Shown: positions 4,769 through 57,868 of the stretch, in pieces | How positions within the stretch are numbered: the first letter of the stretch is position 1 | Layout of the letters: each line of letters starts with the position of its first letter | Source: Prosopocoilus inquinatus | Taxonomy: Eukaryota; Arthropoda; Insecta; Coleoptera; Lucanidae | Reading direction: 5' to 3' | DNA length: 64,000 bases | NCBI GenBank assembly: GCA_036172665.1 | Contig: CM069873.1 | Location: 30,868,001 to 30,932,000 of the forward strand | Notes under the pieces: model-generated | Seen by the model: only the letters and a program-made list of their open reading frames with translations | What the model was told of the DNA's origin: nothing | The model's database searches: none | Position numbers and translations under genes: made by a program

Positions 4769-4948
4769 TTAACCATTGCATTGGTTTCAGTGCGAACATG
4801 GTTGACAAAGTTATAAATAAAACAACCAAGAGTGCATTAGCTTTGAAGAACTACTTCTTTAACCATTGCATTGGTTCCAGTCGAATAAGGTTGGCAAAAA
4901 ATATAAATAAAACAACCAAGAATGTATTGGTTTTGAAGAAATACATAT
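4769..4948 (+). repeat. Tandem duplication, two 90-bp units
   Basis: Two direct units start at 4769 and 4859, each opening with TTAACCATTGCATTGGTT and sharing an internal stretch AAATAAAACAACCAAGA. They are diverged by scattered substitutions. The period is a multiple of three, so both units stay open in one frame, but no protein motif is seen. Element A inserted about 210 bp downstream. Confidence 0.75.
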
Positions 4949-5157: not shown

Positions 5158-5161
5158 ATAT
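5158..5161. other. Target-site duplication of element A (left), ATAT
   Basis: ATAT immediately precedes the 5' LTR and recurs immediately after the 3' LTR at 11696-11699. Four base pairs is usual for Ty3/gypsy integrases. The intact copy argues that this is an original insertion, not a recombinant. Confidence 0.9.
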
Positions 5162-5488
5162 TGTGGCGAGCCAACCTGACTTAGCGCAAGGCGTCAGGAA
5201 GTCGGTCCGCTTCGGTGTGTCATCGGCCGTCACGCGGTCGGGCCCACATCGAACGGACTGGAATCTTCCCGAATAGAGACTTCCAGACGCCAGCAAATGA
5301 TATAAAATGGCCCGGAGTTGACTCACCAGGCAGTCGAATTCGAGCAGCGATAGTCGAAGTTAGATTTTTAGTGTGAAAATAAATTGTTAGAAATAAATTA
5401 GTTTTTAAGCTTCATTAAATTACGGTTAAGTTTTTATCGAGTGTTTTATTCGTTTAAATAAATAAACTCAAACCCTAGAAACGTAACA
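5162..5488 (+). repeat. 5' LTR of element A
   Basis: This 327-bp LTR has TG...CA ends. It contains a TATA-like box at 5301-5307 and several AATAAA motifs in its last 120 bp that could serve polyadenylation. It matches the 3' LTR base for base as far as I can compare. Its G+C-rich first half contrasts with an A+T-rich second half. Confidence 0.97.
5301..5307 (+). promoter_or_regulatory. TATA box in 5' LTR
   Basis: TATAAAA sits 140 bp into the LTR, with an ACTCACCAGGCAGTC stretch about 20 bp downstream where transcription could start. The same motif recurs in the 3' LTR at 11508-11514. The start site itself is inferred. Confidence 0.55.
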
Positions 5489-5489
5489 G

Positions 5490-5507
5490 TGGTGTCGGTG
5501 TGCGGGT
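5490..5507 (+). other. Primer binding site of element A
   Basis: TGGTGTCGGTGTGCGGGT begins one base after the 5' LTR. The leading TGG is expected for pairing with a tRNA CCA end. I cannot name the primer tRNA with confidence from the sequence alone. Confidence 0.6.
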
Positions 5508-5585
5508 TTGTGCAAATAAATAAACAATTTAAAGTAAATTAAATTTAATCAGATTATTAAATAAGTACAGTATCGGAAAAAAACA

Positions 5586-7127
5586 ATGGCTACGAGAAAA
5601 GTGTTGTTGAAAGACTTAAAAGTGGCCGAATTAAAAACCGAATTGGAAGAACGAGAGTTAGAAACCTGTGGTTTGAAAGGCGCACTTCAACAGCGTCTCC
5701 GATCCGATTTGTTGACAGCTGGTGAAGATCCAGAGACGTTCCTTTTCGAAATTTCGTGTGGTCCCGTCGATTTTAATAAAATCTTGAAGGATGAATTTCG
5801 AGAACAATCCAGAAATTTGGACGAGAAGTTTCTAGAACACTCTGGAAATTTCAAGGACGAACTTCGAGAACAATCCAGAAATTTGGACGAGAAGTTTCAA
5901 GAACAGTCTGGAAATTTAGAGAAGAAACTTCTAGAACAATCTGGAAATTTCAAGGACGAACTTCGAGAACAATCTGTAAACTTCAAAGACGAGTTGCGAA
6001 CTAAATTAATGGAACAATCCAGAAATTTAGAGGAGAAGCTTCTAGAACAAGCTGGAAATTTCGACAAATTACAGAATAAATTGTTGGAACAATCTAGAGA
6101 CTTAGACGAGAAATTTCGAGAGCAATCCAGAAATTTCGACGAGAAATTTCTAGAACAAACAAAAGGACTTGAAGATCAACTAGTGGTAAAAATATCGGAA
6201 GAAACAAGGAACTTGCAAGAAAATGTGGAAGAAATAATATTCCAGCAGGATAATAAAATCAAAAATCTGGAACGAATCATGGCGGGGTTGCGAGTGTTCG
6301 GGGATCAGCCACCAGTAGAAACACTAGAAAATAATGAAACCCGAATTGTGGAAGGACCAGCAGAAAATTCTAAACTGAAGATAAAACCACCAACGTTCGA
6401 TGGAAAGTCTTCTTGGCCCAACTACTTCAAACAGTTCGAAGCAGCAGCAAAGGCGAACAGATGGACGGCCAGCGAAAAAGCCACTTCGTTAATTGTGGCC
6501 TTGAGAGGGGACGCTATCGATGTGCTACAGACGATGCCGCCAGAGGAACAAGAAGACTTCGACAAGCTGGTGAATAGGATGGAAATGCGTTACGGACAGG
6601 CCCATCTGACCGAGGTATACCATGCGCAGTTGAGGAATCGCTGTCAGAAATCCGGAGAAACTCTTCAGGAATTCGAAGCAGACGTTGCGCGTCTGGCCCA
6701 GTTGGCATATCCCACAGCTCCTGTTGAATTCCTCAAATGTTTGACGGTGCAGACCTTCATAGATGGAATCCGTGACCCAGACAACCAGCAGGCATTGAGA
6801 ATGACCCATCCGAAGACGTCCAAGAACGCATTGGCTTATGCCTTGGAATTTGAAGCGGCGAGACGAGTCTCAAGAGGGCATGTCAAGGTGCGAGCGGCTA
6901 TGGACTTCCAAGAGGAAGAAGAGGAAGAATCCGCTAACGCCAAGGTGGGATCTGCTATAAAGGAGCGACCCAGGGAGTATACCACCGCCGAGGATGTTCG
7001 CCGCATTGTGGAACAGGTCTTCAAGCAGAAGAAGCCGCTGGTGTGTTGGAATTGCCAGGAGGAAGGACATGTTCGCAGGCGATGTCCAAAGCCCAGACAG
7101 GATCCAAGGAAGCCACAGTTAAACTAA
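5586..7127 (+). CDS. gag: Gag of element A with SAP-like domain, hendecad repeats and CCHC knuckle
   Basis: This 513-residue structural protein should form the virus-like particle and package the RNA. The ATG at 5586 sits in a good AACAATGG context and is the first start after the LTR. Residues about 8-42 fit a SAP motif (a helix-turn-helix usually binding A+T-rich chromatin DNA), with pattern LKVAELKTELEER and ALQQRL. Residues about 70-200 are roughly eleven near-repeats of 11 residues of the type LREQSRNLDEK, predicting a long coiled coil. A capsid-like domain follows at about 260-425 (PPTFDGKSSWPNYFKQFE; RMEMRYGQ). Residues 487-500 form a zinc knuckle C-x2-C-x4-H-x4-C. The stop at 7125 lies directly after a slippery heptamer, so a fraction of ribosomes should continue into pol. 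SAP assignment is by motif only. Confidence 0.93.
   Translation: MATRKVLLKDLKVAELKTELEERELETCGLKGALQQRLRSDLLTAGEDPETFLFEISCGPVDFNKILKDEFREQSRNLDEKFLEHSGNFKDELREQSRNLDEKFQEQSGNLEKKLLEQSGNFKDELREQSVNFKDELRTKLMEQSRNLEEKLLEQAGNFDKLQNKLLEQSRDLDEKFREQSRNFDEKFLEQTKGLEDQLVVKISEETRNLQENVEEIIFQQDNKIKNLERIMAGLRVFGDQPPVETLENNETRIVEGPAENSKLKIKPPTFDGKSSWPNYFKQFEAAAKANRWTASEKATSLIVALRGDAIDVLQTMPPEEQEDFDKLVNRMEMRYGQAHLTEVYHAQLRNRCQKSGETLQEFEADVARLAQLAYPTAPVEFLKCLTVQTFIDGIRDPDNQQALRMTHPKTSKNALAYALEFEAARRVSRGHVKVRAAMDFQEEEEEESANAKVGSAIKERPREYTTAEDVRRIVEQVFKQKKPLVCWNCQEEGHVRRRCPKPRQDPRKPQLN
5790..6180 (+). repeat. 33-nt tandem repeats encoding hendecad coiled coil in gag
   Basis: About eleven imperfect 33-nt units encode variants of EQSRNLDEKF or EQSGNFKDEL. 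Two spacers of 3-4 extra residues interrupt the phase (around the residues RTKLM and DKLQNK). The similarity at DNA level suggests growth by slippage or unequal exchange. Confidence 0.85.
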
Positions 7128-7175
7128 GCCGGGTCGGTGCAGAGGGGCAAACGTCGACCCGTATTCAAAGGCCCC
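7118..7175 (+). promoter_or_regulatory. -1 ribosomal frameshift signal: GTTAAAC, stop, pseudoknot
   Basis: The gag-frame codons TTA AAC, preceded by G, make the heptamer GTTAAAC at 7118-7124, followed at once by the gag stop TAA. After a 5-nt spacer, 7130-7139 pairs with 7152-7161 (ten pairs, two of them G-U). Loop bases GGGGC at 7144-7148 pair with GCCCC at 7171-7175, giving an H-type pseudoknot with loops of 4, 3 and 9 nt. Pol lies in the -1 frame relative to gag and is open through this site, so slippage yields Gag-Pol. GTTAAAC before a stop is, to my knowledge, also used in arteriviruses. Confidence 0.88.
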
Positions 7176-10100
7176 CAAAGACGAAAGCCAACCAAGTAAT
7201 ATCCCTACGGCAGTTAACCAGCAGTATCTTCGTGGATGTTACCATTGATGACATTCCTCACACCATGTTGTTGGATACGGGTGCGACGAAGACCATCCTA
7301 AGACCCGACGTCATTAAGTCATCTGGACGCACCGAGCCGACCAAGTGGAAACTGAAAACTGCAACTGGAACATCAGCGACTGTCCACGGTGAAGTAGAGG
7401 TTATCATCACCATTGGTTCAACTCCAATAAAACACCGTGCACTGGTGGCAGATATAGAGGACGAGGCAATTTTGGGCATGGACGTCATGTGTGCCCACGG
7501 GTTCCAATTGGACTTAAAGCGTGGCGTGATGGCGGTCAATAATGAGGAGTTGGTTCTACATCAACGAGGGGACGTGGCCGCTCGAGTAGTCCTCGCTGAA
7601 GACGTTGTATTACCCAGCAGGACTGAGGTTATCGTCGACGCAAAACTGGACGGTGTTTTTCAAGATGGGCAAGTCATTATGGTTGAACCTAATACTGATG
7701 ATCAAAGGATTGGAAGAGGAGTCCTCGTTGGGAAAATGTTGTTGACGGCGAAGAAGGAAGTACCTGTCCGCCTGATGAACGTCAATTGTTTCTCTGTCAA
7801 TATCAAGAAAGGAACAATCTTGGGAAGCTGCACCATGGTGTCCTCCATCTCCCGGCAACTTGAAACAAACGTGCCAGAAGCGAAAGTCCCAAAGAAATTA
7901 TGGGAAATGGTTATGTCAACAGCCCAGGAATTGACTCCAGACCAGAAGACAAAAGCAAAGAATCTGATCGGCCGCTATCAAGATGTATTTGAAGTAGAAA
8001 ATGGATCCAAGGGAAGAACTGATGTCGTGAAACACAAAATAGAGACTGGAGAAGAAAGACCTATCCGTCAAGCTCCAAGGCGATTACCGTTGGTGAAGCG
8101 TGAGGAAGCGGAACGCATTATTCGCGAGATGGAAAAGGATAATGTAATAGAACCATCAAGCAGCCCGTGGGCGTCACCAGTAGTGCTTGTGAAGAAGAAG
8201 GATGGGTCCACCAGGTTCTGTGTAGACTACCGGTTACTCAATAATGTCACCAAGAAGGACAGCTATCCCTTGCCCCGGATTGATGATACCCTGGACACCC
8301 TGGCCGGCTCAAAGATCTTCTCAACTTTGGACTTAAAGAGTGGATATTGGCAAGTGGAGCTGGCGCCCGAAGATCGAGAAAAGACGGCGTTTTCCATTGG
8401 TATGGGTCTGTGGCAGTTCACAGTGATGCCATTCGGGTTATGTAATGCCCCAGCGACATTCGAGAGGTTAATAGAGACGGTTCTGAAAGGTCTGTCCTGG
8501 ACAACGTGCATGGTGTACCTTGACGACATAATTGTCGTGGGAAAGACGTTCGACGACCACCTAAGGAACCTGGAAGGAGTGTTCCAGCGGCTTCGCGGAG
8601 CTGGACTAAAGCTTAGCCTCAAGAAGTGTCACCTGTTCCAGAAGGAAGTGAATTACCTGGGGCACATTGTTAATGGAAACGGAATCGCCGTGGACCCTGT
8701 GAAGATTCAGGTGGTGAAAGACTGGCCAACTCCCACAAATAAACACCAAATAAGGAGTTTCCTTGGCCTGTGCACTTACTATCGGCGCTACGTTCCTGGA
8801 TTTGCAGACATTGCTAAGCCGTTAACAAAACTCACTGAAGAAGGTCGTCCATTTGAATGGGACCAACAATGTCAAATTGGCTTTGAACAACTAAAGCAGT
8901 ACTTGGTCAGTGCTCCTATTCTGAGTTATCCTCTCCCGGAAGGCAAGTTCGTCGTGGACACAGATGCTAGCAACGTTGGGATTGGTGGCGTACTCTCCCA
9001 GATACAAGAGGGGCAAGAGAAGGTGATCGGCTACTTCAGTAAAGTCCTATCAAAGCCGGAACGAAACTATTGCGTCACAAGAAGGGAATTGCTAGCCGTC
9101 GTAAAAACGATAGAACACTTCTACAAGTACTTGTATGGTAGACGCTTCCTGCTGAGGACCGACCACGCCGCTCTAAAATGGCTTCTCCGTTTCAAGAACC
9201 CAGAAGGGCAAGTTGCACGATGGATCGAACGACTTCAGGAGTACGATTTTGAAATTCAGCATCGGGCAGGAACTAGCCATCGAAATGCCGATGCTCTGTC
9301 GAGAAGACCCTGTGCCGAAGACTGTAAGCACTGTAGTCGTTTGGACGAGAAAATAGCCACGACTGCGAGGACAGCCATTGTTGATGACAAATGGCAAGGC
9401 GAAGAACTGCGAAGAGACCAGGAGAACGACCCGGATTTGAAATTAGTGCTAGAATGGAAAAGCAGGGACGCGAGGCCTACCTGGGAAGAGGTAGCACCAT
9501 GTGCACCGTCCGTAAAATCATACTGGGCGCAGTGGGACTCCATAGTGTTGGATCGTGGTCTTCTGAGACGAAGCATAGAGAATCAGGAAGGCATGGAACA
9601 GAAGACACAGTTACTGATCCCCAAGAATAGGGTGCCAGAAGTTCTGAGGGAACTTCACGATGGAATTTCCGGAGGGCATCTGGGAGTTAAGAAGACTATG
9701 GAGAAGGTGCGCGAAAGATTTTACTGGGTGAACTGCAAGGAAGACGTGAAGGATTGGTGCAGAAAGTGTACAGTTTGCGCAGCCAGTAACGGTCCCCACA
9801 GGCGGGGTAAGGCTCCCATGAGACAGTACAACGTTGGAAGTCCTTTTGAGAGAGTTGCCATCGATGTAGCCGGCCCGTTTAAAGAAACGAATGGTGGAAA
9901 CAAGTACATCGTCGTGGTAATGGACTACTTTAGCAAGTGGGTTGAAGCTTACGCCCTACCTAACCAAGAGGCAGTCACTATTGCGGAAGTCCTTGTCAGG
10001 GAATGGATCAGTCGGTATGGTGCACCTATGGAACTGCATTCAGACCAAGGAAGGAACTTTGAATCGGCCTTGTTCAAGAACGTGTGTACTCTGCTCGGCG

Positions 10101-11386
10101 TACGAAAAACTAGAACAACTGCACTCCACCCACAGTCGGACGGAATGGTGGAAAGGTTCAATAGAACCATCAACCGACATTTGTCCAAGGTCGTTTCCAA
10201 TCATCAGAGGGACTGGGACACGTACATCTCCCTGTTTCTAATGGCATACCGCTCATCTGTTCATGAGACAACAGGGGAGACTCCCGCGAAAGTGGTATTC
10301 GGGCGAGAGCCGAGACTGCCCTGCGACCTGAAGTTTGGTGTGAAGCCTGGCGAAGTCTCTGCCGACGAAGATTACGTGAGCAAATTACGCAGGAAAATGG
10401 ATGATATCCACAACCAAGTGCGTCACAATATACAGACGGCCAGCGATCGGATGAAGGAGCACTATGACATCAACGCTCAACACGGGGGATACCAACCTGG
10501 AGCACTGGTCTGGCTTTATAACCCCCAAAGACGTCGAGGCCTTTCCCCAAAATTACAGACCTCTTGGGAAGGTCCTTACAAAGTGATGAAACGGATCAAC
10601 GACGTCGTTTACCGCATCAGGAAGGTCCCCCGTGGCAAACCCAAAGTAATCCACTTCAACCGGATAGCCCCTTACCATGGAGAAGCAGATGAAGGGACAG
10701 TACAAAGGGCGCAAGTTTCCGAAGTGAACTTCGAAACCTTCATGTCTCATCACGCCGAAGGAAGCAAGGCACGGTTTGGAGTGACCACGGAGAAGCAACA
10801 AGATCTCTTTAAAGTGCCACTGGAGTACAGTCTGGCCCACTGCGTAGCAGAAGACCTGAAAATGTCCAAAGGAATCGCTCAGGTGTTTAGGAAGAAATTT
10901 GGCCAAATCGAGGAGCTACGAAGACAGCATCCCGTGGTAGGCAAGAGCTTGCAGATCATTGATTCGACGGCAGATCGGAGGCGCCACGTGCATTATTTAG
11001 TCACTAAGAAGACATCAAGCGGTAAACCTGACTATGTGACTATGTGGAGAGCCCTATATAGCCTGAGGAGACAGCTAATAGAGAACCATCAGATGAAGTT
11101 AGCCATCCCCAAATTGGGCTGCGGATTGGACGGACTAGACTGGAGAGTAATCCGAAGCATGCTGGAAGTCATCTTCCACAGAACGGGAATTGAAGTCCTA
11201 GTCTGCAGCCACCACCCACAGGCAACAGTCAGCAACAGCAAAACCGTAGACTGTTACTTCTTCCAGACGGGAAGTTGCAAGAATGGGCCAGCATGTAGAT
11301 TCCGACACCCTCCTTCAAGACTATCACCAGGAACATTTCGAGACGAAACGTTTCTAAGAGGGGGGCAGTGTGGCGAGCCAACCTGA
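7124..11386 (+). CDS. pol: Pol of element A: PR-RT-RNaseH-IN-macro-CCCH
   Basis: About 1420 residues are read after -1 frameshifting; no ATG near the beginning is needed. Numbering from the codon at 7124: protease DTG at 51-53; reverse transcriptase with YLDD at 465-468; RNase H with an active-site Asp at 614; integrase zinc finger H845, H852, C882, C885; catalytic triad D914, D974, E1010 with 35 residues between the last two (DD35E); a GPY/F-type module at 1150-1152. Instead of ending there, Pol continues with a TARG1/OARD1-like macro domain at about 1219-1364 and a CCCH finger at 1377-1395. The frame runs through the polypurine tract and stops 18 bp inside the 3' LTR. All catalytic residues I can check are present. 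It is not known whether the protease releases the extra module as a separate protein. Confidence 0.95.
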   Translation, partial: LSRVGAEGQTSTRIQRPPKTKANQVISLRQLTSSIFVDVTIDDIPHTMLLDTGATKTILRPDVIKSSGRTEPTKWKLKTATGTSATVHGEVEVIITIGSTPIKHRALVADIEDEAILGMDVMCAHGFQLDLKRGVMAVNNEELVLHQRGDVAARVVLAEDVVLPSRTEVIVDAKLDGVFQDGQVIMVEPNTDDQRIGRGVLVGKMLLTAKKEVPVRLMNVNCFSVNIKKGTILGSCTMVSSISRQLETNVPEAKVPKKLWEMVMSTAQELTPDQKTKAKNLIGRYQDVFEVENGSKGRTDVVKHKIETGEERPIRQAPRRLPLVKREEAERIIREMEKDNVIEPSSSPWASPVVLVKKKDGSTRFCVDYRLLNNVTKKDSYPLPRIDDTLDTLAGSKIFSTLDLKSGYWQVELAPEDREKTAFSIGMGLWQFTVMPFGLCNAPATFERLIETVLKGLSWTTCMVYLDDIIVVGKTFDDHLRNLEGVFQRLRGAGLKLSLKKCHLFQKEVNYLGHIVNGNGIAVDPVKIQVVKDWPTPTNKHQIRSFLGLCTYYRRYVPGFADIAKPLTKLTEEGRPFEWDQQCQIGFEQLKQYLVSAPILSYPLPEGKFVVDTDASNVGIGGVLSQIQEGQEKVIGYFSKVLSKPERNYCVTRRELLAVVKTIEHFYKYLYGRRFLLRTDHAALKWLLRFKNPEGQVARWIERLQEYDFEIQHRAGTSHRNADALSRRPCAEDCKHCSRLDEKIATTARTAIVDDKWQGEELRRDQENDPDLKLVLEWKSRDARPTWEEVAPCAPSVKSYWAQWDSIVLDRGLLRRSIENQEGMEQKTQLLIPKNRVPEVLRELHDGISGGHLGVKKTMEKVRERFYWVNCKEDVKDWCRKCTVCAASNGPHRRGKAPMRQYNVGSPFERVAIDVAGPFKETNGGNKYIVVVMDYFSKWVEAYALPNQEAVTIAEVLVREWISRYGAPMELHSDQGRNFESALFKNVCTLLGVRKTRTTALHPQSDGMVERFNRTINRHLSKVVSNHQRDWDTYISLFLMAYRSSVHETTGETPAKVVFGREPRLPCDLKFGVKPGEVSADEDYVSKLRRKMDDIHNQVRHNIQTASDRMKEHYDINAQHGGYQPGALVWLYNPQRRRGLSPKLQTSWEGPYKVMKRINDVVYRIRKVPRGKPKVIHFNRIAPYHGEADEGTVQRAQVSEVNFETFMSHHAEGSKARFGVTTEKQQDLFKVPLEYSLAHCVAEDLKMSKGIAQVFRKKFGQIEELRRQHPVVGKSLQIIDSTADRRRHVHYLVTKKTSSGKPDYVTMWRALYSLRRQLIENHQMKLAIPKLGCGLDGLDWRVIRSMLEVIFHRTGIEVLVCSHHPQATVSNSKTVDCYFFQTGSCKNGPACRFRHPPSRLSPGTFRDETFLRGGQCGEPT
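10778..11215 (+). other. TARG1/OARD1-type macro domain within Pol of element A
   Basis: This region encodes about 146 residues with the hallmark order of the TARG1 family (terminal ADP-ribose protein glycohydrolase; it removes ADP-ribose from acidic residues). Seen are DLFKVP, SLAHCVAEDLKMSKGIA, FRKKFG, HYLVTKK and IPKLGCGLDGLDW. The catalytic pair of human TARG1 is Lys84 and Asp125, 41 positions apart. Here the first Lys of TKK (codon at 11006) and the Asp of GCGLD (codon at 11129) are also exactly 41 apart. Both residues are therefore retained, and hydrolase activity is plausible. It sits after the integrase GPY/F module in the same frame. Capture from a host gene is inferred. Confidence 0.9.
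11252..11308 (+). other. CCCH zinc finger at Pol C-terminus
   Basis: The encoded segment fits C-x7-C-x5-C-x3-H: CYFFQTGSC, then KNGPAC, then RFRH. The aromatic residues and the GSC-K-G pattern match the CCCH family, which usually binds RNA. It follows the macro domain by about a dozen residues. CCCH fingers also accompany ADP-ribosylation proteins in animals (for example PARP12), but a shared role here is only a guess. Confidence 0.82.
11356..11368 (+). other. Polypurine tract of element A
   Basis: AAGAGGGGGGCAG directly precedes the 3' LTR and would prime plus-strand DNA synthesis. It is simultaneously coding, as pol reads through it. Confidence 0.85.
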
Positions 11387-11695
11387 CTTAGCGCAAGGCG
11401 TCAGGAAGTCGGTCCGCTTCGGTGTGTCATCGGCCGTCACGCGGTCGGGCCCACATCGAACGGACTGGAATCTTCCCGAATAGAGACTTCCAGACGCCAG
11501 CAAATGATATAAAATGGCCCGGAGTTGACTCACCAGGCAGTCGAATTCGAGCAGCGATAGTCGAAGTTAGATTTTTAGTGTGAAAATAAATTGTTAGAAA
11601 TAAATTAGTTTTTAAGCTTCATTAAATTACGGTTAAGTTTTTATCGAGTGTTTTATTCGTTTAAATAAATAAACTCAAACCCTAGAAACGTAACA
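11369..11695 (+). repeat. 3' LTR of element A
   Basis: This 327-bp LTR appears identical to 5162-5488. Its first 18 bp contain the last codons and stop (TGA, 11384-11386) of pol. It is followed by the ATAT target duplication. Confidence 0.97.
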
Positions 11696-11768
11696 ATATC
11701 AATAATTATAAATATGAATAAGAAAAATTTAAGTTTGCTTTTGGCTAGCAACGTGAAATTTAACATTA

Positions 11769-52566: not shown

Positions 52567-52570
52567 TGCG

Positions 52571-52799
52571 AGTTATGTTAAACGCTCTATGACCCCTGAT
52601 TAGTAATATAAACAAGTGACGCATTGTTATTGTCCACTCATTTATCGTTATCTTTACTAAATATACAAACTATAGCATATATATTAGGGTCAGAACTTTA
52701 GTTTAGTCATATCTGCAGAACTTGTAACCGTTACTCTGCCCATCTGTAACTTTAATAAATGTTTTAAAAAACATTAACGTGTTTATAAAAAACATAATT
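52571..52799 (+). repeat. 5' LTR of element B
   Basis: 229 bp, AGTTA...AATT, with an AATAAA polyadenylation motif at 52754-52759. Identical by eye to the 3' LTR. Confidence 0.95.
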
Positions 52800-52816
52800 G
52801 GCGCAGTCAGTAGGAT
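52799..52816 (+). other. Primer binding site of element B (tRNA-Ser type)
   Basis: TGGCGCAGTCAGTAGGAT starts on the last base of the LTR. TGGCGCAGTC is the serine-tRNA type site of the gypsy/17.6/297 group. Confidence 0.85.
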
Positions 52817-53109
52817 AGTGCGGTCGCGAAAAAAGGTGCATCGTGCAAATTAAAATCGCGATTTGGGACTCCAGTTCCTTCAGTACTACCCAAAAGAACC
52901 CTGGACGAAGAAACTTCAAGAGAAATACATCGTGTAAGGCTCTGAAGATACCATTCGTCTTCCAATCCATAGAGGAGATCCACAGCTCTGGGCAACGCAG
53001 ATATCAACCTTTCACAAAATAGACGACTGGCAATTCCCGGATTTGGTGAGACCAAATTTTGAGTATCCCGTCTAATTTTTTCCATTATTTACCTGATTTC
53101 TTGTCTTAT

Positions 53110-56100
53110 ATGAACAGCAATTCAGTAAATAACTTAGATTTAGATTCTTTAATCGAAACATTTAATAATAGTATTAATCTATCTAAACCAACTGTAATCC
53201 AAGCAAAAATGCCAGAAGTAAATTATCAATTATTAAAATTATATGTAGACACAATTCCATCATACAATGGTGACCAAAATTCATTAGAAATTTTCATAGC
53301 GTCCTGCGACTATTTGTTCAATGAAATTAGTAACAACGACCCTCAAATAACTTCATATTTAATTAGAGTAGTAATTGGTAAATTAAAAGATCACGCACAA
53401 ATCTTAATTGGCACTAGGAACGAATTAAATACTTGGCCTTTAATAAAAAATGCTTTAAGAACTAGTTTCGGTGATCAGAGAAATTTAGATTGTCTCGAAC
53501 AAGACTTAATCACATTAACACCTTCAAAAAATGAACCACCATTAGAATTCGGCAAACGAATACAAATATTACGTAGTAGATTGTCTGCAAAATTAAACTC
53601 AATTAGTACAACGGAAATACCACAAGCCACAAAATTAGTATATTCTAAACAATATGACAATCTAGCATTAAAAACCTTCCTTCGTGGTTTATCGGGTAAC
53701 TTCCAAAGCATTGTAAGACTAAGAAACCCTATATCACTAGAAAATGCAATGGCCTATGTAATAGAAGAAGAGAACTTTATGTATACTCAAAATCTTCCTA
53801 ATATATTACATAATAATAAAAGCTCTTCTAACCAAATCAAAACGCAACCTCAAATGTTACCTAAGACGTTCAACTCATTTCCACAATATTCACACGTACC
53901 TACATCATTTAATCAATATCCTCAAAGATCTAACATGCAAATTCATCAAACACCTCTTACACAATGGCCACGAAATTTCTATAACCAAAATCCAAGACCC
54001 TGGACTTCTAACCAATTCCCTAGTCAACCTATTGACGTGAGACCAAGAGTAGTTCAACAAAAACAATTTACTAACTCTCAAGTTTTTGGTACTCCGAAAA
54101 ATGTCTTTAAACCAACAGGACAAATCCCAACAAACAAACCGGAACCAATGTCAACCACATCCAGAATCCCAACAATTAGACAACATAATAATTATAATAA
54201 TTATTTTAAAAACACTATACCAACATCAAGAAATTTTATTTCAGAGGAATTAAATCTCATGGAAAATAATTACTGTAATCACGAGCATACAGAAACGTAC
54301 CCTGATCCTTCTTTAAACATCCCTGATCATTACGATAACAATATTTGCAATGAGCAAAACTATGAACTTAACAATGTAAATAATGAGACTGACGAAGAGA
54401 TTAATGACGAATCCCAAATAAAACAACTTTCAAAATTTTCGGATGACTCACTCAACAGAAGACGCGACGTAATTTACGAAATCAACAACACGACTTGTGA
54501 TAATTCACTACCGTATATTAAAATTCAGAATCCACCTATTAAATTACTTATTGATACCGGATGTTATAAATCTATTATCAGACCTTCTATTGCAGAAAAA
54601 TACTTCCCAAATAAAATCTCTCAAGAAACATCAATAATTAAAACACCCATAGGAGAAAAGAAAATTAAATTTAAAGCTCACATTCCAGCATTTAAAGAAT
54701 TAGCAACTGACAAAGTAATTACTTTTATTCTTTTTGATTTTCATGATTTCTACGATGGCATATTAGGATTAGAAGACCTCAGAAACCTAGGAATATCAAT
54801 TAATCTTGCAGAGAAGAATTTAAGTAACAGTAATACAATCATTCCTTTCTACTACAGATTGCCTAAAGAAAACTCTTTTACAATTAGTGTTAACACCCAC
54901 GAAATTTTAAAAACTAAAGTTCCTGTAAACTATTATAATGGAGATGTGATAATTCCTGAACAAACTATAAATGACTTATACATCCCAGAAACTTTAACTA
55001 CTGTAAAAAACGGTTTTGCATTACTTGAAATCTCCAATAATACCGATTCCAGAATTACAGCAAACCTCATAAAGCCATTTGAAATTATACCTTTTCCAGA
55101 TAAAGAAAAAGAACAATATCAAATTTTTCATGCAGAACAATTTTTAACAGAAAATCACGCTGACAACGACACCGAGCATATTGATAAATTAATTAGAACT
55201 GATCATTTAAATCCAGAAGAAAAAAAAGCTACAATTTCCTTATGTCGTGAATTTTCAGATATTTTCCATAATAACAGTAAGAATTTGACTTTCACAAACG
55301 AAGTTAAGCATTCCATAAAAACTACCGACGCAATCCCAGTTCATACAAGATCATATAGATATCCTTTTATTCATAAGCCGGAAGTAGAAAGACAAATTAA
55401 CAAAATGCTCGATGATGGTATAATTAGACCATCACAAAGTCCCTGGAGTTCTCCTATTTGGATCGTTCCAAAAAAATTAGATAGTAGTGGTAAACAAAAA
55501 TGGAGAATTGTAGTAGACTACCGAAAAGTCAACGAAAAAACAATAGATGATCGTTACCCAATTCCGAACATTAATGACATACTAGATAAGTTAGGAAAAT
55601 GTCAGTACTTTAGTACTTTAGATTTGGCATCAGGATTCCATCAAATTGAAATGGAGCCGCAATCTGTTTCCAAGACCGCCTTTAATGTAGAGAACGGGCA
55701 CTACGAATTCGTCAGAATGCCATTTGGGCTTAAGAATGCACCTGCTACGTTCCAAAGGGTGATGGACAACATATTGAAAGACCTCCAAGGTAAAATTTGT
55801 TTTGTCTATATGGATGACATAATTATCTTTTCTACCTCTCTTCAAGAACATATTGCAAATTTAAAATTAATTTTTAAAAAATTACGTGAGTCAAAATTAA
55901 AAATCCAACTCGATAAATCAGAATTCTGTAGGAAAGAAGTAGAATTTCTCGGGCATGTTGTAACACCGGACGGCATTAAACCAAACCCGAAGAAAATCTC
56001 TGCAATTCAGAAATTTCCAATACCGAAAAATTCTAAAGAAATTAAAAGTTTCTTAGGACTTCTCGGGTACTATCGCAGATTTATCAAGAACTTCGCCAAA

Positions 56101-56667
56101 ATTACAAAACCATTCACAAAATGTTTAAAAAAAGGAGAGAAAATAGAACACACAGAAGAATTCTGCAAAACTTTCGAATTATGTAAGAATTTATTATGTA
56201 ATGACCCAATTCTACAATACCCTGATTTTGATAAACCTTTTAACTTAACCACAGATGCTTCTAATGTTGCTATAGGAGCAGTGCTCAGCCAAGGCCCCAT
56301 AGGCAAAGATTTACCTCTTGCATACGCTTCACGTACGTTGAATCCGGCTGAATGTAATTATAGTACAATAGAAAAAGAGTTACTAGCTATTGTCTGGGCC
56401 ACCAAATATTTTAGACCTTACCTTTTCGGGCGTAAGTTTGTTATCGTAACAGATCACAAACCTTTACAATGGTTATTTAGCCTAAAAGAACCTAACTCTA
56501 GACTTGTAAGATGGAGACTCAAACTCGAAGAGTATGATTATACAATCACATATAAAAAAGGAAACCAAAACACCAATGCAGATGCTTTGTCGCGTATTGA
56601 AATAAATACTATAGAAGGCACTGACGAAATTTCTAGACAATTTGGAAAACGCAGTGGTTTTTGCTAG
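53110..56667 (+). CDS. gag-pol: Gag-protease-RT-RNase H polyprotein of element B, lacks integrase
   Basis: From the first in-frame ATG at 53110 the product has 1185 residues. Residues about 1-250 are a gypsy-type Gag ([24 protein letters not shown]), followed by an Asn/Gln/Pro-rich stretch; no CCHC knuckle is seen. The protease motif DTG is at 482-484, reverse transcriptase YMDD at 900-903, RNase H starts near its active-site Asp at 1049, and the frame reaches the usual end motif NADALSR. About 20 residues later it stops, where integrase should begin. Gag and Pol share one frame without a frameshift, unusual for this group. The last few residues come from DNA beyond the deletion joint. Codon use is A+T-rich like the surroundings. 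Confidence 0.92.
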
Positions 56668-57646
56668 ATTAAATACCTTACATAACTCTGTCATATCATT
56701 TGAAGACATGAACAATATGATAGATACATTAGTTAAACTTTACGAAGAAAATAAAATTCTTAAATTCAAAAACATTCATTCTTATTACAATTTAGCTAAC
56801 TCAAAGGTGACTGTTCATAATGACAAAGTAATCTTCCTTATGCATATTCCTGTCTTCAGTCCTATACAATTTGAATATTACCATATATTTCCTGTTCCTC
56901 AAAATAATTTTACCCTTGTACCAAAAAGTCCTTACCTGATACTCAATAACCAAGGCCATCAATATGAAGATGAAGAATGTCCAACGATTGAAAATACCTA
57001 CATCTGTAATAAAAGACCCTTTATAAAAGAGGAAGACTGTGTGACATCCATCATTCAGAATATCAAGACTACTAAATGTCAATTGACTCCCATATCTACG
57101 AGTAATACCATTTATGAACAAATCAACAAGAACTACATAATAATTGTACCTGCCAAATTGCCAATAAAATTACAGAAAAAATGTAAAACTACTGGATACA
57201 ACATAATAGAAAAACCAAGCCTCGTCAAAATCCCTTTCCATTGTCAAGTAATGGACGGAAGCTTCAAAATCATCAATGAAGAAAAAATCATTCAAGGAGA
57301 ACCCTTCATTCTACCTAAAATGAAAACAGAGGAAATACAAGAACTCCCAAATCTAGAACACCTGCACTTAGAGGACTTGAACCTGGATGACATCTCGAAG
57401 TTACAACGACAATCCAGTATGCAGCCAACTTCTAGAACCAGAGAATGGCACCCCCTGAAGATTTCCTTCTTTTTGAGCAACCTAGTTTTAATAATAATAT
57501 GCTTTGTTTTCGTGTTCATCATACTCAAATATAGAAAGACCCAAAAACAATCAAAAGTAAGAAAAAGCGATAAATCAGAGGAAGCGAGGGATGAAAATAA
57601 TACTTCACTATTATTTTCCAATTTAAAAAGGGAGGAGTTATGTTAA
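56615..57646 (+). pseudogene. env: Env remnant of element B, C-terminal part only
   Basis: The frame is open from 56615 and overlaps the end of the polyprotein in another register. It lacks an ATG in a proper position and lacks the signal peptide, the first subunit and the fusion-peptide region. The surviving part starts with the [15 protein letters not shown] region typical of insect F-type envelope proteins. It continues through an ectodomain with several cysteines and ends in one hydrophobic membrane segment at about 57461-57525 (SNLVLIIICFVFVFIIL) and a basic tail. The stop lies inside the 3' LTR. It cannot direct entry as it stands. Confidence 0.85.
57625..57635 (+). other. Polypurine tract of element B
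   Basis: AAAAAGGGAGG directly precedes the 3' LTR start AGTTA and is also coding for the env remnant. Confidence 0.85.
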
Positions 57647-57864
57647 ACGCTCTATGACCCCTGATTAGTAATATAAACAAGTGACGCATTGTTATTGTCC
57701 ACTCATTTATCGTTATCTTTACTAAATATACAAACTATAGCATATATATTAGGGTCAGAACTTTAGTTTAGTCATATCTGCAGAACTTGTAACCGTTACT
57801 CTGCCCATCTGTAACTTTAATAAATGTTTTAAAAAACATTAACGTGTTTATAAAAAACATAATT
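57636..57864 (+). repeat. 3' LTR of element B
   Basis: 229 bp, apparently identical to 52571-52799. It contains the env stop codon (57644-57646) and is followed by the TGCG target duplication. Confidence 0.95.
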
Positions 57865-57868
57865 TGCG

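What the first reader, a model, noticed from the sequence alone, without database searches (positions are those of the whole stretch)
10778..11308. Retrotransposon Pol fused to a TARG1-type ADP-ribose macro domain and a CCCH finger
Downstream of the integrase GPY/F module, in the same frame, lies a macro domain of the TARG1/OARD1 family with both catalytic residues retained at the exact family spacing of 41 (Lys codon 11006, Asp codon 11129), then a CCCH finger. Ty3/gypsy elements normally end at integrase or carry env. Viral macro domains are known to remove ADP-ribose placed by host PARPs. An element that carries its own glycohydrolase could be countering an ADP-ribosylation defence or repairing ADP-ribosylated nucleic acid at integration. 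The fold and residues are seen; the role is inferred.
Basis: partly seen in the sequence, partly recalled or inferred. Interest (0 to 1): 0.92.

Follow-up and report, generated by a model that had tools for sequence, protein, structure and literature searches.

The report
Beetle retrotransposon carrying an ADP-ribose eraser
A young, apparently intact mobile element, probably in an insect genome, carries, fused to its integrase, a well-preserved copy of an enzyme fold that removes ADP-ribose tags, and a group of related elements, known mainly from beetles, shares it, which suggests that removing or reading these tags helps the element to spread.

The parts
5158..5161 (.). target-site duplication ATAT, left copy
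   Evidence: same 4 bases directly outside both LTRs
5162..5488 (+). 5' LTR, 327 bp, TGTGG...TAACA
   Evidence: 327 of 327 bases identical to the 3' LTR
5490..5507 (+). primer-binding-site-like stretch starting TGG, one base after the LTR
   Evidence: read from sequence; not matched to a tRNA
5565..7127 (+). gag open frame: SAP domain, 33-nt internal repeats, CCHC knuckle
6938..11386 (+). pol open frame, 1482 codons plus stop, -1 frame relative to gag with a 190-nt overlap
7232..7489 (+). aspartic protease
   Evidence: PF13650 E=2.3e-10
8120..8737 (+). reverse transcriptase (approximate limits)
   Evidence: PF00078 (part of the domain in the piece scanned); 75-81% identical to four long relatives
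8936..9244 (+). RNase H
   Evidence: PF17917 E=5e-34
9617..9790 (+). integrase H2C2 zinc-binding domain
   Evidence: PF17921 E=6.1e-21
9842..10123 (+). integrase core
   Evidence: PF00665 E=5.7e-13
10571..10672 (+). integrase C-terminal module (GPY/F region)
   Evidence: PF22938 E=9.2e-13
10688..10777 (+). variable linker between integrase and macro domain
   Evidence: 31-55% identical where aligned, 7 of 8 relatives
10778..11212 (+). TARG1/OARD1-type macro domain
11006..11008 (+). catalytic Lys codon (TARG1 K84)
11129..11131 (+). catalytic Asp codon (TARG1 D125)
11252..11308 (+). CCCH zinc finger C-x7-C-x5-C-x3-H
   Evidence: PF00642 28.3 bits; resembles a CPSF4 finger, E=3.9e-8
11356..11368 (+). 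polypurine tract, inside the pol frame; with the LTR start it encodes the RGGQC end that recurs as RRGQC in relatives
   Evidence: sequence directly before the 3' LTR; residues in relatives
11369..11695 (+). 3' LTR; the pol stop codon is bases 16-18 of it
11696..11699 (.). target-site duplication ATAT, right copy

Best explanation
A lineage of Ty3/gypsy elements, found so far mainly in beetles, acquired a cellular TARG1-type macro domain with a CCCH finger at the C-terminus of integrase, most simply once, and has largely kept it. The domain is made as part of Gag-Pol, is packaged with integrase and enters the nucleus with the DNA copy. There it acts as a mono-ADP-ribosyl hydrolase through its Lys-Asp pair. 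It clears ADP-ribose that host PARPs place on DNA ends, gaps, integrase or nearby chromatin during integration, or that helps to repress the element; the CCCH finger holds the enzyme on nucleic acid. Shown here: the fusion, the TARG1 fold and residues, one clade of elements, retention across divergent elements. Inferred: catalytic activity, site of action, substrate, benefit.
For: Open in-frame fusion in a young element: LTRs identical over 327 bp, gag and pol frames open. TARG1 best by sequence and by fold. With a search that left the macro domain out, it is present in 23 of the 26 nearest of 120 listed relatives and in 0 of the other 94. In trees of RNase H-integrase the window, 21 of those carriers and the three non-carriers are one clade: 99 SH-aLRT, 100/99. 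Catalytic Lys in 152 and Asp in 153 of 155 aligned domains with a letter there (the window's own row is one, six are not shown to be fusions, and many are near-copies). In 27 chosen fusion rows, 18 pocket-motif columns (picked by recall) have mean entropy 0.61 against 1.58 bits elsewhere, reached by 0 of 10000 random draws. Macro identity to four long relatives is 59-62%, protease 46-62%, RT 75-81%. Published: TARG1 strips ADP-ribose from DNA ends and thymidine (PMC5725667, PMC8501950; passages); in Drosophila parp-1 mutants five of eight significantly changed mobile elements went up, and ten more rose without significance after correction, nine of these gypsy-type (PMC7712786; passages).
Against: No activity was measured. 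P0155 has lost both catalytic residues (R, N), P0152 the Asp (N) and P0150 the Lys (R) while keeping a macro domain. P0144, P0146 and P0157 sit inside the clade without it; P0144 keeps the C-terminal tail, so it looks like an internal deletion. The macro tree with all fusions given to it does not show them as one group: three unnamed free-standing domains fall inside. Lower conservation than RT could mean weak constraint. The authors of PMC7712786 say the derepression may be indirect, and three of the eight elements went down.
Confidence: 0.5

Rival explanations
1. One reading: the macro domain binds ADP-ribose without needing to cut it, and directs integrase to ADP-ribosylated chromatin or DNA breaks, much as chromodomains do at the same end of integrase in chromoviruses.
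For: Same position as chromodomains (recalled). Domain kept in P0150, P0152 and P0155 despite loss of one or both catalytic residues. CCCH finger beside it.
Against: Catalytic Lys and Asp kept in 152 and 153 of 155 domains, which pure binding would not require.
Confidence: 0.22
2. RNA-side function: macro plus CCCH act in the cytoplasm or particle, removing ADP-ribose from element RNA or Gag, as viral macro domains are thought to do against host PARPs.
For: CCCH fingers often bind RNA (recalled), and this one resembles a CPSF4 finger. TARG1 can reverse modification of RNA (PMC7237415, start of abstract in the listing).
Against: Fused to integrase rather than Gag; one subclade keeps the macro domain without the finger (P0143, P0147, P0149, P0153, P0154, P0156). 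Antiviral CCCH-type PARPs are not known to me from insects (recalled).
Confidence: 0.15
3. Passenger: a captured host exon that is tolerated, drifting and being lost.
For: Three near relatives lack it; some copies lack catalytic residues; it is less conserved than RT.
Against: Open frame, one clade of carriers whose RNase H-integrase differs from the window's by up to about a third, pocket motif more conserved than the rest, presence in five named beetle species of three families.
Confidence: 0.1

Closest known systems
Human TARG1/OARD1 (C6orf130), mono-ADP-ribosyl glycohydrolase
   Same: Fold, catalytic Lys-Asp pair at spacing 41, best sequence and structure match
   Different: TARG1 is a free-standing host enzyme; here the domain is the C-terminal part of a retrotransposon Pol and is followed by a CCCH finger
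Epsilon-like endogenous retroviruses of ray-finned fish with macro-domain open frames (Basta et al. 2009, as cited in PMC4977317; passage read, original not held)
   Same: A retroelement that took up a macro domain
   Different: Retroviruses of fish with additional open reading frames; the passage does not describe a fusion to integrase or a CCCH finger, and which macro family they carry was not compared here
Chromoviruses, Ty3/gypsy elements with a chromodomain at the integrase C-terminus (recalled)
   Same: Accessory domain fused at the same end of integrase
   Different: A different domain, with a chromatin-reading role rather than a hydrolase fold
Macro domains of alphaviruses and rubella virus
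   Same: Macro fold
Macro-less arthropod Ty3/gypsy elements, some named 412-like, K02A2.6-like or Ips erranti-like virus 3
   Same: 55-62% identical over RNase H-integrase
   Different: Pol ends 0-19 residues after the aligned integrase region; no macro domain in 94 of 94 listed

Membership tests
Ty3/gypsy LTR retrotransposon | LTRs with target-site duplication | tested here: met
   327-bp identical LTRs, ATAT on both sides
Ty3/gypsy LTR retrotransposon | Domain order protease, RT, RNase H, integrase | tested here: met
   Pfam matches in that order; several relatives are named Ty3- or 412-type Pol
Ty3/gypsy LTR retrotransposon | Mobility | not testable with these tools
   identical LTRs and open frames suggest recent insertion only
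TARG1/OARD1 macro domain | TARG1 is the best match by sequence among solved macro domains | tested here: met
   E=1e-28; next macro group, 5m3i (DarG), 1.6e-5
TARG1/OARD1 macro domain | TARG1 fold | tested here: met
TARG1/OARD1 macro domain | Catalytic K84 and D125 | tested here: met
   Lys 11006, Asp 11129, spacing 41; alignment
TARG1/OARD1 macro domain | ADP-ribosyl hydrolase activity | not testable with these tools
   needs an assay
Pfam PF01661 (general Macro model), by Pfam's own cut-off | Score above 22 bits | tested here: not met
   18.0 bits; so the domain is filed by its TARG1 match, not by this model
CCCH zinc finger | Pfam zf-CCCH above its cut-off | tested here: met
   28.3 bits against 20.5; fold not resolved in the model
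Chromovirus | Chromodomain after integrase | tested here: not met
   no chromodomain among matches up to E=0.1 in the pieces scanned

The most novel reading that the evidence does not exclude
A transposon clade carries its own integrase-linked, nucleic-acid-guided ADP-ribose eraser that it needs against an ADP-ribosylation-based restriction of integration or expression in beetles: a transposable-element counter-measure against ADP-ribosylation, and a pointer to a genome defence not described so far.
Probability: 0.3. Interest if true: 0.88.

Novelty: new variant of a known kind. Interest (0 to 1): 0.68.

Why it matters
Domains kept by selfish elements point to host processes that limit them. 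A TARG1-type domain kept on integrase in one clade, next to sister elements without it, offers a natural comparison: PARPs, DNA-end ADP-ribosylation or ADP-ribosylated chromatin may shape retrotransposon integration. Lineages that lost the catalytic residues or the finger separate cutting from binding. It also shows that TARG1 folds have been taken up by a retrotransposon lineage.

Tried and rejected
One-off fusion or assembly chimera: rejected. Relatives with the fusion include Pol frames of 1372-1447 residues on single contigs of 4.6-6.2 kb (P0010, P0049, P0112, P0113). The 120 listed hits (97 Aromia moschata, 16 Molorchus minor, 7 unnamed, counted by eye) all align over the domain, but that search used the domain itself, so this is so by construction; the 60 unlisted hits were not seen.

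Chance resemblance: rejected and the shuffle control.

Donor of the domain and number of captures: not resolved. One search gave 18 hits, few of them free-standing and none of those named. In one search (70 rows, 35 of 70 usable viral rows) the fusions and three unnamed free rows (P0135, P0138, P0139) formed one group (100/97) with those three inside it; starred branches force two changes and 0% of 200 bootstrap trees had the fusions as one side. In one search (40 rows), after I dropped the divergent fusions P0150, P0152 and P0155, and P0136 and P0137 (near P0134), and thinned the viral rows to ten, the fusions were one side of a branch at 82/75, not starred. One capture is the simpler reading from the integrase trees, but the macro tree does not show it.

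Viral donor: one search found 76 loci on viral contigs with relatives at 29-45% identity (best segment). In one search the 35 viral rows were one side of a branch (79/87) and the ten were too (91/76), apart from the fusions, so no support for such a donor; the viruses were not identified.

Bacterial genome contigs: 1 weak bacterial relative among 52 pattern matches, no retroelement. Second copy in the window for a codon test: none. dN/dS between copies: not possible, as only proteins of relatives were held. Host species: not established. Literature: searches showed no paper on a macro domain in a Ty3/gypsy element, judged from titles, starts of abstracts and the passages of PMC4977317; searches list only part of what they found (30 of 1221, 30 of 10526, 15 of 31, 10 of 14). 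Most subscription papers and repeat databases are not held, so a prior description is not excluded.

Full report
What is there. The window holds an apparently intact LTR retrotransposon at 5162-11695. Its two LTRs are identical over 327 bp and flanked by ATAT. A gag frame (5565-7127; SAP domain, 33-nt internal repeats, CCHC knuckle) overlaps a pol frame (6938-11386, 1482 codons) that lies in the -1 frame. Pol has protease, RT, RNase H and integrase in the Ty3/gypsy order. The two 4-kb blocks that hold the element are 41% and 48% G+C, the rest of the window 29-35%.

Not a one-off. Searching with the macro-finger region found 180 proteins, 120 listed. All 120 align over the domain, as that search requires; Lys, Asp and the His of the LAHC motif are in 120 of 120, and the finger's four residues in 119-120 of 120. 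Most are near-copies within Aromia moschata (97) and Molorchus minor (16), so these counts are not independent. One search added Gonioctena quinquepunctata (a gene model that begins in the linker) and Pyrocoelia pectoralis (begins in integrase's end; its model lacks the finger), Callosobruchus maculatus; all five are beetles of three families. One further carrier is filed under the fungus Erysiphe pulchra.

One clade. To avoid choosing by the macro domain, I searched with RNase H to integrase only (3779 proteins at E up to 1e-30, 120 listed and examined). Of the 26 listed with at least 65.9% identity, 23 carry the macro domain (P0140 only its first part; why it stops is not known); 0 of the 94 at 62% or less do, and their proteins end within 19 residues of the aligned integrase region. 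In trees of that region the carriers and three non-carriers form one clade: 99 SH-aLRT with 72 rows, every second outgroup row used, and 100/99 with 42 rows, 17 outgroup rows picked by hand. P0002 was not given to the trees and P0167 fell out by its short alignment. Carrying needs at least four changes on the tree: one gain and three losses would do. P0144 keeps the C-terminal tail and so looks deleted; P0146 and P0157 end after integrase, and whether by real stops cannot be told from proteins.

Variation inside the clade. Over 156 aligned macro domains (one is the window's own, six are not shown to be fusions) Lys is kept in 152 and Asp in 153 of the 155 with a letter there. P0150 has Arg for Lys, P0152 Asn for Asp, P0155 both; P0136, not a shown fusion, has Asn for Lys. 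Of the 23 carriers, 14 have a CCCH pattern; P0140 and P0167 are cut short; P0142 has none intact; six (P0143, P0147, P0149, P0153, P0154, P0156) have none and form one subclade, 98/90. The finger was thus probably lost there while the macro domain stayed. Pocket-motif columns are more conserved than the rest (0.61 against 1.58 bits, 0 of 10000 draws), with the caveat that I chose the columns by recall and the 27 rows by hand. The macro domain is less conserved than RT and about as much as protease.

Origin. The macro trees do not settle donor or number of captures. With the divergent fusions in, three unnamed free-standing domains fall inside the fusions, and no bootstrap tree has the fusions alone on one side; without three divergent fusions and some other rows they do stand alone, at 82/75. 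TARG1-like domains of viral contigs stand apart in both.

Mechanism. Fusion to integrase should put the domain into the particle and, with the DNA copy, into the nucleus (recalled for integrase, inferred for the fusion). TARG1 removes ADP-ribose from Asp/Glu, DNA ends and thymidine (PMC5725667, PMC8501950; passages), and integration leaves gaps and ends of the kind that PARPs sense (recalled). In Drosophila parp-1 mutants five of eight significantly changed mobile elements rose and three fell; ten more rose without significance after correction, nine of them gypsy-type; the authors allow an indirect effect (PMC7712786; passages). I therefore favour an active eraser at integration or against repression (0.5), over a reader or tether (0.22), an RNA-side role (0.15) and a passenger (0.1).

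Known or new. Fish retroviral elements with macro-domain frames are cited in a review (PMC4977317, passage; Basta et al. 2009 itself not held). The searches of the held library showed no paper on a Ty3/gypsy macro fusion; I judged by titles and starts of abstracts, and searches list only part of what they found. I class it as a new variant of a known kind.

Noticed in passing
window 52570-57868: A second LTR element (234-bp direct repeats at 52570-52803 and 57635-57868, 99.6% identical) with RT, RNase H and a Baculo_F-like envelope stretch whose frames overlap directly: no integrase matched in the two pieces scanned, so it seems to lack integrase and perhaps the start of env.
   Followed up: partly
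P0152, P0155, P0150: Relatives whose fused macro domain has lost one or both catalytic residues yet is retained; a natural test of reader against eraser.
   Followed up: partly
P0143, P0147, P0149, P0153, P0154, P0156: A subclade with the macro domain but no CCCH finger.
   Followed up: partly
P0156: A macro-bearing Pol filed under the powdery mildew Erysiphe pulchra: contamination or horizontal transfer.
   Followed up: no
L001-L076: 76 loci on viral contigs of 4 to 394 kb encode TARG1-like macro domains at 29-45% identity (best segment); their neighbours were not read.
   Followed up: no
window 5784-6200: Gag contains an array of 33-nt (11-residue) repeats after a SAP domain; what it does was not tested.
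   Followed up: no
window 4769-4948: Two tandem 90-bp copies (78% alike) upstream of the element.
   Followed up: no
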